Positions 29,775 to 35,151 of a stretch of DNA of 64,000 nt are shown here, piece after piece; the first letter of the stretch is position 1, and the number at the start of each line of letters is the position of its first letter. The position numbers and the translations under genes were made by a program. This DNA comes from Candidatus Proelusimicrobium volucris (GTDB lineage Bacteria; Elusimicrobiota; Elusimicrobia; Elusimicrobiales; Elusimicrobiaceae): positions 62,001 through 126,000 of the forward strand of contig CALUXD010000001.1 of assembly GCA_944324665.1 (NCBI GenBank). The letters are read 5' to 3'. The notes beneath the pieces are model-generated. The model saw nothing but the letters and a program-made list of their open reading frames with translations, did no database searches and was not told the DNA's origin.

Positions 29775-30002
29775 TTACAGCTTTTCCCATATATAATCGC
29801 CCCAGGCGTCTTCAAAGGCGCGCAGATCGCATTTTAGCGGCTTGCCTTCGGCGGCAACTTCCATAACTTCCAGCTCGCCGCCCTCTGCCGGCTCCCAAGT
29901 ATCAGGGTGCCCGCTTTTATTCTCGGCGGTCGGCGGTGTATAATACCCCGACACTTCAAGAGTCAGGCCGCCTATATCAAGCTCTATATCGTATGGCGTC
30001 AT
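29775..30002 (-). CDS. Small early phage protein, beta-rich
   Basis: 75 residues, acidic, IELDIGGLTLEVSGYYTPPT, then EPAEGGELEVMEV and a Trp-containing helix (AFEDAWGDYIWEKL). This opening resembles widespread small phage proteins of unknown function. Eight bases behind the excisionase-like gene. Confidence 0.55.
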   Translation of the reverse strand: MTPYDIELDIGGLTLEVSGYYTPPTAENKSGHPDTWEPAEGGELEVMEVAAEGKPLKCDLRAFEDAWGDYIWEKL

Positions 30003-30010
30003 ATTTCCCC

Positions 30011-30193
30011 CTAAATTACCTTTGCCGAGACTTTTAAATTTTCCATATCGGAACGCTTAAAAAAGTACTTCCTCGCTCCGGGGTAAGGCTTTACGGCCGG
30101 CACCCTGCCCAGCTTTGCCAAATAACGCAGCCATTGCGGGGTAAACCCCAGCAATTGCGCCGCTTCCTTCGTCGATAAATATTCGTTAATCAT
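30011..30193 (-). CDS. Excisionase/HTH_17-like DNA-binding protein
   Basis: 60 residues: LSTKEAAQLLGFTPQWLRYL, then GRVPAVKPYPGARKYFFKRS, a winged-helix MerR/excisionase-type domain. First gene behind the early leftward promoter and structured leader. Likely Xis or a Cro-like early regulator. Which one cannot be decided from sequence. Confidence 0.72.
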   Translation of the reverse strand: MINEYLSTKEAAQLLGFTPQWLRYLAKLGRVPAVKPYPGARKYFFKRSDMENLKVSAKVI

Positions 30194-30224
30194 TTTTAAC
30201 CTTCTTTAATTACTTTAATTTGGT

Positions 30225-30421
30225 AAAATAAAACCGTATAGGCCTTTCCTCTCTTAAGTTGGGCCTATACGGACTTAGATATAGCACGATCGGTATGTAT
30301 TACCTATCGTATTAGCCTGTTAGCGGCAGGCTAAAAATTTTAAAACTATTTGCTATTTGCTATATCTAAGCCGCACATTGCGGATTTAAGATTACCCCGC
30401 CAAAGCGGGATTGAACCTTAT
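30225..30421 (-). ncRNA. Structured early leader RNA with attenuator hairpin
   Basis: From the predicted start (~30421) leftward: hairpin CCCGC-TTTG-GCGGG (30396-30409); hairpin CCGCA-ATG-TGCGG (30371-30383); a 12-bp stem CTTAGATATAGC (30274-30285)/GCTATATCTAAG (30359-30370) enclosing TTAGCCTG/CAGGCTAA (30312-30334) and ACGATCGGTA/TACCTATCGT (30286-30310, one mismatch); finally CCGTATAGGCC/GGCCTATACGG (30234-30272) followed on this strand by TTTTATTTT, an intrinsic terminator 32 bases before the first early gene. It may be an attenuator/antitermination leader or a free ~200-nt phage RNA. Family not recognised. Confidence 0.68.
30234..30272 (-). terminator. Attenuator before the first early gene
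   Basis: 11 perfect base pairs with a 17-nt loop, U-tract TTTTATTTT (30233 to 30225 on the minus strand). All early genes lie downstream, so they need read-through or antitermination. Confidence 0.7.
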
Positions 30422-30456
30422 GTACTTATTGTAGGTAATGTTAAGTACATTGTCAA
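30420..30456 (-). promoter_or_regulatory. Early leftward promoter with overlapping dyad operator
   Basis: TTGACA (30451-30456), 17-bp spacer, TACAAT (30428-30433) on the minus strand. A perfect 9-bp dyad ATGTACTTA (30420-30428)/TAAGTACAT (30442-30450), centre 13 bp, covers the spacer and the downstream edge of the -10. This is the expected operator of the divergent CI/LexA-like repressor. ATTTGC motifs flank it at about 30347-30360 (twice) and 30463-30486 (three times). Confidence 0.8.
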
Positions 30457-30500
30457 GGGGTGATTTGCATTTGCCCTAATTTGCGACGAGGAAAAGGTTT

Positions 30501-31157
30501 ATGGATAAAAAAGAAGAACTTTTAAAAAAATGGAATAATGGCGTTTTAAGGGGCGCTCAATTACATTTAGCCAAAGAGTTAAACATCTCACATGTTTCAG
30601 TTACAAGGTGGTTTAAAGGAACACAAAAGCCATCAGAAATTTATATTAAAGAAATGTCCAAACTATTTAAAAAGTCAGAAAGTGAACTTAGAGAAATCTT
30701 TAATATAAACGAGAAGACTCAAAACAATATTGTAGAGGGCAAAATAGAGCTTACATATATACCAGTTCGCGGGCTATCGTCGGCCAGCGGCGGGAAATTT
30801 ATCCTCGAGGAAACCGAAACCTTTTTACCTTTCAAAAAAAGCGGCCCAAATCAATTTGCTATCAAAATTGTAGGCGATTGTATGGTAGATCCCGACGATC
30901 CGCGCAATAGCATATATGACGGCGACTATGTCATAGTTGATCCCGATGTGGAGGCCCGCAACGGCGATGTAATCGTCGCGCGATTAGACGGCGAATACAG
31001 CACCGTCAAACGTATGTACCGCCATGGCGAGGAAGTCCGCCTTGTTCCCGATAATCCCGAATATGCCCCGATAATTCGCACCGCCGCCACCTTTATCGTC
31101 GGCAAGGTTATAGACGTATACCGCCCTGTTCGCGCCAAGAAAGAAAGAAACAACTAG
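30501..31157 (+). CDS. Prophage repressor, LexA/CI-like with S24 peptidase domain
   Basis: 218 residues. HTH at about 18-50 (LHLAKELNISHVSVTRWFKG). The C-terminal S24 fold begins at IPVRGLSSASGG; IKIVGDCMVDPDDPRNS carries the nucleophile position, and Lys in YSTVKRMYRHGE is the general base. The usual GDSM reads GDCM, so Ser is replaced by Cys. The scissile Ala-Gly or Cys-Gly is not obvious: SASGG offers Ser-Gly. It represses the divergent early promoter and opens a rightward lysogenic transcript. GAGGAAAAGG ribosome site. Confidence 0.88.
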   Translation: MDKKEELLKKWNNGVLRGAQLHLAKELNISHVSVTRWFKGTQKPSEIYIKEMSKLFKKSESELREIFNINEKTQNNIVEGKIELTYIPVRGLSSASGGKFILEETETFLPFKKSGPNQFAIKIVGDCMVDPDDPRNSIYDGDYVIVDPDVEARNGDVIVARLDGEYSTVKRMYRHGEEVRLVPDNPEYAPIIRTAATFIVGKVIDVYRPVRAKKERNN

Positions 31158-34131: not shown

Positions 34132-35151
34132 ATGGGCATATTTAAACACCCCAAAACGGGCATATATCACGCCAATTACTTTAACGACAGCGGCAAACGT
34201 TGCCGCCCGTCCTTGCACACGCGTGATAAACGTATAGCCCAAATCAAATTTGCGGAAATTGTGCAAGGCAAGGAGGCTCTCTCAGGCAACGCGTCAAAAA
34301 TTCCGTGGCAAGCATTTAAAAATAAATTTATAGAAACAATCGCCCCGGAGCGAGCTAAAACCACCATAAACCACTTTAAACGCGCCTGCTTTTATTTGGA
34401 AAGCGAACTCCACCCAAAATACCTTACGGATATGACCCCGCTTAAATTGCAGGAATTAAAAACAATACTAAAAGAGCAAGGCAAAGGAGAAGCGGGCATA
34501 AACCGCTGGCTTAGGGCTTTAAAAACGATGTTGCGCAAAGCCGAAGACTGGAACTATATCCCCCCACAAAAGTGGCAAAGCGTCGGCAGTTTTAAGGAAG
34601 TGGAACACCGCGTGGTTTTTTATACTGTTGCGGAACTAAAAAAGATGCTTAAATGCGCTAAACTGTTTGAAAAGACTCTAATTTTACTTGGTTGCCAAGC
34701 GGGTTTGCGCCGCGGAGAAATCGCAAATCTTCAATGGCAAGATATAGATTTTAAAAAGGCTGTTCTATCAATAACACCTAAAGATAATTGGCACCCAAAA
34801 GATTTTGAAGTCCGTCATATTCCGCTTGCCAAACAGCTGGGGAACCATTTAAAGGCATTAAAAGAAAAAGCCCAAAGTCTCTATGTTTTAGCAAAACAAG
34901 ACGGGCGGCCTTACACCCCTGATGAGCTGACAACGCTTTTCACGCGCTTTTTGAAACAGGAAGATGTAAACATTCCGGGCAATATCCATAAACTAAGGCA
35001 TACTTTTGCCAGCTTGATAATGCAAAACGGCGGTAATTTATACGATTTAAGCAAACTTATGGGGCATAGTAGCATTAAAATGACGGAAAAATACAGCCAC
35101 TTGGGCAAAATAAAAACAGAAACTACCATAGATCGCTTGCCTAATTTATAA
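34132..35151 (+). CDS. Tyrosine recombinase (integrase)
   Basis: 339 residues. Arm-binding N-terminus (GIFKHPKTGIYHANYFNDSG), core-binding domain (about 60-165), catalytic domain with Arg in CQAGLRRGEIANLQWQDID, His-x-x-Arg in HKLRHTFASLIMQ, His in LMGHSSIKMTEKYSHL and the Tyr nucleophile in that segment. Located next to attR, 73 bases before the core. It integrates and excises the prophage at tRNA-Gln. Confidence 0.94.
   Translation: MGIFKHPKTGIYHANYFNDSGKRCRPSLHTRDKRIAQIKFAEIVQGKEALSGNASKIPWQAFKNKFIETIAPERAKTTINHFKRACFYLESELHPKYLTDMTPLKLQELKTILKEQGKGEAGINRWLRALKTMLRKAEDWNYIPPQKWQSVGSFKEVEHRVVFYTVAELKKMLKCAKLFEKTLILLGCQAGLRRGEIANLQWQDIDFKKAVLSITPKDNWHPKDFEVRHIPLAKQLGNHLKALKEKAQSLYVLAKQDGRPYTPDELTTLFTRFLKQEDVNIPGNIHKLRHTFASLIMQNGGNLYDLSKLMGHSSIKMTEKYSHLGKIKTETTIDRLPNL

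What the first reader, a model, noticed from the sequence alone, without database searches (positions are those of the whole stretch)
30194..30456. Early operon begins with a structured ~228-nt leader ending in an attenuator
Between the consensus early promoter (TTGACA-17-TACAAT) and the first early gene lie five perfect or near-perfect helices: two small hairpins, a 12-bp stem that encloses two more hairpins (a three-way junction), and an 11-bp stem with a U-tract. The last is an intrinsic terminator 32 bases before the gene, so early expression must overcome it. Such an arrangement recalls RNA-based antitermination (put sites of HK022) or a free phage RNA, but the fold is not one I know.
Basis: partly seen in the sequence, partly recalled or inferred. 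Interest (0 to 1): 0.78.

Follow-up and report, generated by a model that had tools for sequence, protein, structure and literature searches.

The report
Structured RNA inside phage lysogeny switch
Dormant viruses of Elusimicrobia bacteria begin their lytic operon with a strongly folded, undescribed RNA that ends in a stop signal overlapping a predicted backward-facing promoter for the repressor, so the two opposing transcripts would be complementary; it is a new kind of part in a familiar type of virus on/off switch, and its exact action is still untested.

Summary
On the minus strand, 30420-30225 folds into P1, P2, a 12-bp P3 enclosing two hairpins (P4, P5), and an 11-bp P6 with a U-tract (z about -7 to -8). 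I found 20 more leaders of this type beside phage repressors in the same bacterial family. Most cannot be aligned by sequence. They share the layout (P3 abutting P6), and wobble pairs in their stems fit RNA on the lytic strand (26 G.U against 5 A.C). No Rfam family matches. (1) The P6 U-tract is, read backwards, an extended -10 promoter (TGnTAAAAT) present in 19 of 21 leaders, including three that lost the U-tract. It faces the repressor gene, which has no other consensus promoter. (2) The first early gene is an excisionase-like HTH. The layout is therefore a P2/186-like face-to-face lytic/lysogenic switch whose overlap encodes the folded RNA. Not supported: put-like processive antitermination, a conserved antiterminator, CRISPR-repeat mimicry. 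Best guess: most early transcripts stop at P6, giving a ~190-nt RNA antisense to the repressor mRNA leader. The anatomy is well supported; the regulatory steps are inferred.

The parts
30501..31157 (+). CI-like repressor (HTH_3 + Peptidase_S24)
   Evidence: Pfam PF00717 2e-21, PF01381; PHROG repressor 3.9e-36
30428..30456 (-). early (lytic) promoter TTGACA-17-TACAAT
   Evidence: equivalent TTGACA promoters at most related loci
30420..30450 (.). palindrome ATGTACTTA-N13-TAAGTACAT over the early promoter, presumed repressor operator; a different palindrome in the relatives
   Evidence: binding not tested
30387..30420 (-). P1 hairpin
   Evidence: covarying pair in G017
30371..30383 (-). P2 hairpin CCGCA-aug-UGCGG
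30359..30370 (-). P3, 5' strand CUUAGAUAUAGC
30312..30334 (-). P4 hairpin (loop CCGCUAA), compensatory U-A to C-G in G017
30286..30310 (-). P5 hairpin, sequence largely replaced but still a hairpin in G017
30274..30285 (-). P3, 3' strand GCUAUAUCUAAG, one nt before P6
30234..30272 (-). P6, 11-bp stem with a 17-nt loop, terminator hairpin
30225..30233 (-). U-tract UUUUAUUUU, predicted 3' end of the early RNA
30221..30229 (+). extended -10 promoter TGGTAAAAT, antisense to the leader, facing the repressor; candidate lysogenic promoter
30011..30193 (-). first early gene, 60-aa HTH_17/excisionase-like protein
   Evidence: PF12728 6e-9; PHROG excisionase families
29775..30002 (-). second early gene, 75 aa, unknown, kept in G017

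Best explanation
The leader is a structured regulatory RNA lying in the overlap of two face-to-face promoters of a temperate phage switch. The early promoter, presumably blocked by the repressor at a phage-specific palindrome, starts an RNA that folds into P1-P6; P6 with its U-tract stops most polymerases, releasing a ~190-nt RNA, and the fraction that reads through expresses the excisionase-like HTH and the recombination genes. The U-tract is also the -10 region of an opposing extended -10 promoter that transcribes back through the leader into the repressor gene (lysogenic promoter). The two transcripts are therefore complementary over about 200 nt. I infer that P6 filters leaky early transcription in the lysogen, and that colliding transcription and pairing between the early RNA and the repressor-mRNA leader reinforce the on/off choice. 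Shown by sequence analysis: fold, conservation, strand, order of parts, antisense -10 motif. Inferred: termination in vivo, promoter activity, antisense action.
For: Fold z -7 to -8, same fold in G017. 21 leaders of this type from 20 genomes beside phage repressors; mean fold z -6.0 on the early strand against -4.9 on the other. G.U 26 against A.C 5 in the stems, 21 against 5 after removing near-duplicates, p = 2e-4, so the stems are kept as early-strand RNA. P3 abuts P6 beyond chance (fraction of shuffles <= 0.05) in 15 of 21. U-tract after P6 in 18 of 21. Extended -10 in reverse at P6 in 19 of 21, kept in three leaders whose U-tract is gone, with variation typical of a -10 (TAAAAT, TATAAT, TACAAT, TAAACT). 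In the window this motif is a promoter signature: 6 of 12 copies lie in the 9% intergenic DNA, and the five besides ours lie just upstream of genes or tRNAs. No consensus plus-strand promoter found next to the repressor. First gene excisionase-like, as Cox/Apl in P2-like phages with face-to-face promoters (PMC7498355).
Against: No transcript data. The antisense promoter has no evident conserved -35. P6 has a 17-45 nt loop in many members, which is unusual for an efficient terminator. In three leaders (G030 and two in G122) the U-tract is missing and no P3 abuts P6, so neither is universal. The repressor ribosome site is not covered by the early RNA, so antisense silencing would need cleavage or another step. 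A phage with a nearly identical repressor start and an identical early promoter lacks the P2-P6 module (G038), so the module is not essential to the switch.
Confidence: 0.45

Rival explanations
1. Passive noise filter: P6 is a plain partial terminator that keeps leaky early transcription off in the lysogen, and the upstream helices only protect the RNA and keep P6 free to fold; no RNA-RNA regulation.
For: P6 has no conserved competing partner; P3 abuts and could insulate P6; termination insulators are known in mobile elements (Tn916 T1, PMC11658703).
Against: A simple terminator does not need about 190 nt of conserved multi-helix architecture kept through near-complete sequence turnover with wobble bias on one strand.
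Confidence: 0.22
2. Conditional antitermination: the P1-P5 domain is a sensor for a host or phage protein or ligand that lets polymerase pass P6.
For: Structured domain directly upstream of a terminator, as in riboswitches and protein-controlled leaders; one architecture across many phages.
Against: No shared sequence core stands clearly above shuffles, as a common ligand or protein site would predict; no conserved alternative pairing with the P6 5' arm; no Rfam match.
Confidence: 0.14
3. RNA-only processive antitermination of the put/canT type acting in cis on polymerase.
Against: P6 is the only strong terminator-like site on the early strand from 31.0 to 18.0 kb; the adjacent terminator would always be cancelled; layout unlike put.
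Confidence: 0.07
4. Antisense-controlled attenuation of the pT181/pIP501 type: the lysogenic transcript binds the leader and forces P6, which is otherwise prevented by an antiterminator pairing.
For: Antisense promoter just beyond the terminator; in this window GGCUAAUACG could pair with CGUAUAGGCC of P6 (by eye, 9 of 10; shuffled fraction 0.08).
Against: The antiterminator pairing is not conserved: the fraction of shuffles reaching the observed pairing spans 0.01 to 1.0 over 21 leaders, many above 0.4.
Confidence: 0.08
5. Trans-acting free phage RNA, for example an anti-CRISPR repeat mimic.
For: A discrete ~190-nt RNA is predicted; Cas9 is present in 8 of 13 searched leader-bearing genomes; a host spacer matches the operator/P1 stretch of a related phage.
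Against: No significant similarity between the CRISPR repeats of six hosts and their own phage leaders.
Confidence: 0.04

Closest known systems
[quoted passage not shown]
   Same: Repressor gene, then repressor-controlled lytic promoter, then opposing candidate lysogenic promoter, then small excisionase-like HTH as first lytic gene
   Different: Promoters about 200 bp apart instead of 40-60 bp (PMC7498355); the overlap encodes a conserved folded RNA; a terminator lies on the lytic strand exactly at the lysogenic -10; S24-type repressor
HK022 putL/putR antiterminator RNA
   Same: Structured RNA just downstream of an early phage promoter
   Different: put is ~70 nt with two stem-loops, binds the RNAP zinc-binding domain and suppresses distant terminators (PMC9378689); here ~190 nt, six helices, little sequence conservation, ends in its own terminator, no distant terminators seen
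Tn916 canT / pLS20 conAn termination-antitermination systems
   Same: Mobile-element operon with a terminator near the start and structured RNA upstream
   Different: canT and conAn serve operons with several terminators that only loaded polymerases pass (PMC11658703, PMC8955417); here one terminator directly after the element
Antisense-controlled plasmid leaders (pT181, pIP501; CopA/CopT) - from general knowledge
   Same: Structured leader, terminator before the gene, opposing promoter making complementary RNA, fast sequence turnover with fixed architecture
   Different: No conserved antiterminator; the opposing transcript would continue into a repressor gene; no transcript shown

Membership tests
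P2/186-like face-to-face switch | lytic and lysogenic promoters converge | tested here: met
   early promoter and reverse extended -10 in 19 of 21 leaders; by motif only, activity not tested
P2/186-like face-to-face switch | separation of about 40-60 bp | tested here: not met
   here about 200 bp; literature value
P2/186-like face-to-face switch | small HTH excisionase/Cox-like protein as first lytic gene | tested here: met
   HTH_17, PHROG excisionase hits for this phage; 11 family members carry this HTH after the leader, other members have different first genes
P2/186-like face-to-face switch | Cox/Apl protein binds at the lysogenic promoter | not testable with these tools
   needs footprinting
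HK022 put | ~70 nt, two stem-loops | tested here: not met
   against PMC9378689
HK022 put | suppresses terminators further down the operon | not testable with these tools
   activity cannot be tested; no further strong terminator-like site on the early strand in the 18.0-31.0 kb stretch scanned, so no target was seen
pT181-type antisense attenuation | antiterminator (pre-emptor) pairing with the terminator 5' arm | tested here: not met
   no conserved complementarity over 21 leaders
pT181-type antisense attenuation | opposing promoter making RNA complementary to the leader | tested here: inconclusive
   promoter motif present, transcript not shown
any Rfam family | score above the family's gathering threshold | tested here: not met
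   no match for this leader or for 19 loci with related leaders
anti-CRISPR repeat-mimic RNA (Racr) | similarity to the host CRISPR repeat | tested here: not met
intrinsic terminator | GC-containing hairpin followed by a U-rich tract | tested here: met
   11 bp with 7 G-C pairs by the scan, UUUUAUUUU; the 17-nt loop is longer than usual

The most novel reading that the evidence does not exclude
The early leader RNA and the repressor-mRNA leader form a true antisense pair: a phage counterpart of plasmid CopA/CopT control in which two opposing structured RNAs, started at face-to-face promoters, silence each other and add RNA-level, phage-specific immunity to the protein repressor. Fast sequence turnover with fixed architecture would then be the mark of immunity types.
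Probability: 0.2. Interest if true: 0.85.

Novelty: new variant of a known kind. Interest (0 to 1): 0.6.

Why it matters
It gives a phylum with little phage biology (Elusimicrobiota) a defined, recurring switch module and a structured RNA type absent from Rfam. The P6 end appears to serve two opposite transcripts (terminator one way, promoter the other). If the antisense reading holds, lysogeny control in these phages would act at the RNA level as well as at the DNA level, and the natural phage that shares promoter and repressor start but lacks the module (G038) gives a ready comparison.

Tried and rejected
Rfam at gathering and permissive thresholds: nothing above cut-off. BLASTN against phage records: mainly chance-level hits of about 46 bases to Staphylococcus phages over the promoter end; no record covers the leader. 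Exact P4 motif GCCTGCCGCTAACAGGC in viral and genome contigs: among the hits only the G017 contig was recognised as related. P3 pattern in viral contigs: none. Relatives through the ERF-like gene in viral contigs were fetched but their leaders were not examined one by one. Antiterminator pairing: not conserved. Shared short sequence core for a polymerase or protein site: only A/T-rich words, at or barely above the shuffled maximum. Downstream terminators for processive antitermination: none strong (the simple scan gave mainly in-gene hairpins on that strand). CRISPR-repeat mimicry: rejected. Phi29 pRNA (three-way junction) considered only; this phage has an ordinary large terminase. The idea that the conserved tail is only a U-tract was dropped when three leaders kept the reverse -10 without the U-tract. 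Column-based covariation on MAFFT alignments of the distant leaders is unreliable; arm-by-arm complementarity was used instead. A covariance model was not built for that reason.

Full report
1. The thing itself. On the minus strand a near-consensus promoter (TTGACA-17-TACAAT, 30456-30428) overlaps a 9-bp palindrome (30450-30420) and is followed by a leader that folds into P1, P2, a 12-bp P3 closing a junction with P4 and P5, and an 11-bp P6 followed by UUUUAUUUU; the first gene starts at 30193. The fold is 7-8 standard deviations below dinucleotide shuffles.

2. Setting. The locus is a prophage: integrase 34132-35151 (+), S24-type repressor 30501-31157 (+), then on the minus strand the leader, a 60-aa excisionase-like HTH, an ERF recombinase, a DUF1351 protein and the large terminase.

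3. Relatives. One close homologue (G017) is 79% identical over 215 bases. It folds on its own into the same structure. Aligned, 91.9% of cells of the window structure pair, against 25-42% when the 3' partners are slid; five pairs change on both sides, in P1, P4 and P5 (two sequences only). P5 has a largely different sequence but remains a hairpin. The repressor HTH and the operator differ between the two phages while leader and first genes are kept, so leader conservation is not a by-product of operator conservation. Through the HTH gene, the repressors and the tail motif I collected 21 leaders of this type from 20 genomes of the same bacterial family. Most are not detectable by BLAST yet show the same order: promoter with its own palindrome in most, small hairpins, a long stem enclosing at least one hairpin, and P6 starting within a few bases of that stem. 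A P3 abutting P6 is beyond chance (fraction of shuffles <= 0.05) in 15 of 21. Repressor-adjacent regions in the sister family f2 show no such leader, nor do HTH relatives outside the family by inspection.

4. Which strand. Stems were searched with G.U and A.C treated alike. In early-strand orientation 26 wobble positions are G.U and 5 are A.C (21 and 5 after removing near-duplicates; p = 2e-4 against base composition). Mean folding z is -6.0 on the early strand and -4.9 on the other. So selection acts on RNA made from the early promoter. Caveat: members are related, so the p-value is approximate.

5. The end of the leader. P6 is followed by a U-tract in 18 of 21 leaders, and in the window P6 is the only strong terminator-like site on the early strand from 31.0 to 18.0 kb in my scan. 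But conservation runs past the U-tract: TTTTATTTTAnCAAA. Its reverse complement, TTTGnTAAAATAAAA, is an extended -10 promoter. Across 90 family genomes the pattern CNNTTTTATTTTANCAAA occurs 34 times, against 7 for the reversed control. In the window TGnTA[ACT]AAT occurs 12 times; 6 copies lie in the 9% intergenic DNA, and the five besides ours lie directly upstream of genes or of the tRNA-Thr and tRNA-Gln genes. In the leaders it is found in 19 of 21 at the same place; the other two have TG one base off. Three leaders (one in G030, two in G122) have lost the U-tract but keep TGCTAAAAT, and the hexamer varies as -10 boxes do (TATAAT in G131, TACAAT in G054 and G018, TAAACT in G051). No consensus promoter was found on the plus strand between the early promoter and the repressor. 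The simplest reading is that the repressor is transcribed from this site back through the leader. In G025, a repressor locus without the P6 arrangement, a perfect TGGTATAAT faces the early promoter from much closer.

6. Mechanism. The order repressor - lytic promoter - opposing lysogenic promoter - excisionase-like HTH is that of P2-like phages, where face-to-face promoters are 40-60 bp apart and Cox/Apl acts on the lysogenic promoter (PMC7498355). Here the gap is about 200 bp and encodes the folded RNA. I propose that most early transcripts stop at P6, yielding a ~190-nt RNA complementary to the 5' part of the repressor mRNA; read-through expresses the lytic genes. Termination, promoter activity and RNA pairing are predictions, not observations.

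7. Tests of alternatives. Antiterminator pairing between the P6 5' arm and upstream sequence is not conserved, against the pT181-type mechanism. put is ~70 nt, two stem-loops, binding the RNAP zinc-binding domain (PMC9378689); canT and conAn serve operons with several terminators (PMC11658703, PMC8955417). Neither the structure nor the terminator content matches here, and an adjacent terminator would always be cancelled by a constitutive cis-antiterminator. Cas9 is present in the own genome and in 8 of 13 searched leader-bearing genomes against 11 of 41 other searched family members, but the hosts' CRISPR repeats do not resemble their phage leaders.

8. A natural deletion. The prophage in G038 has a nearly identical repressor N-terminal part and an identical early promoter, palindrome and P1 to that in G029, but the sequence diverges right after P1 and P2-P6 is absent. 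The module is separable from the repressor-operator unit.

9. Verdict. Observation confirmed; the interpretation needs revision: a conserved structured RNA in the overlap of a face-to-face switch, with a terminator on one strand doubling as promoter on the other. New variant of a known kind. Weak points: no transcripts, motif-based promoter calls, shallow alignments, metagenome assemblies, and a divergent subgroup (G030, G122) without an abutting P3 or U-tract.

Noticed in passing
L340 (G000:C1:52000-66000), array from about 2004; spacers at 2798 and 3392: The own genome carries Cas9 next to a CRISPR array a few kb left of the window; one spacer (28/30) matches the operator/P1 stretch of a related phage (G029), another (27/30) a gene of the G017 prophage.
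   Followed up: partly
L247 (G038:C6) against L245 (G029:C3): Natural leader-less version of the same early promoter and repressor start: identical up to the end of P1, then unrelated sequence with a short ORF.
   Followed up: partly
window 30478-30491 (+), and the same place in G017, G040, G029, G006: Conserved CGACGAGG-like stretch just before the repressor start in otherwise different phages; perhaps a shared ribosome site or another control element.
   Followed up: no
L003 2379-2449 (+): A tRNA gene inside the early operon of the G017 prophage, downstream of the leader.
   Followed up: no
L122, L123, L124, L127: The P4 hairpin sequence GCCTGCCGCTAACAGGC recurs as a strong hairpin in unrelated GC-rich viral contigs; probably coincidence or a common hairpin.
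   Followed up: partly
L254, L255 and similar loci in most g6 genomes: A family-wide HTH gene with a TTGACA promoter and, in L254, an opposing TGCTACAAT motif at a hairpin may be a domesticated or host version of the same promoter layout.
   Followed up: no
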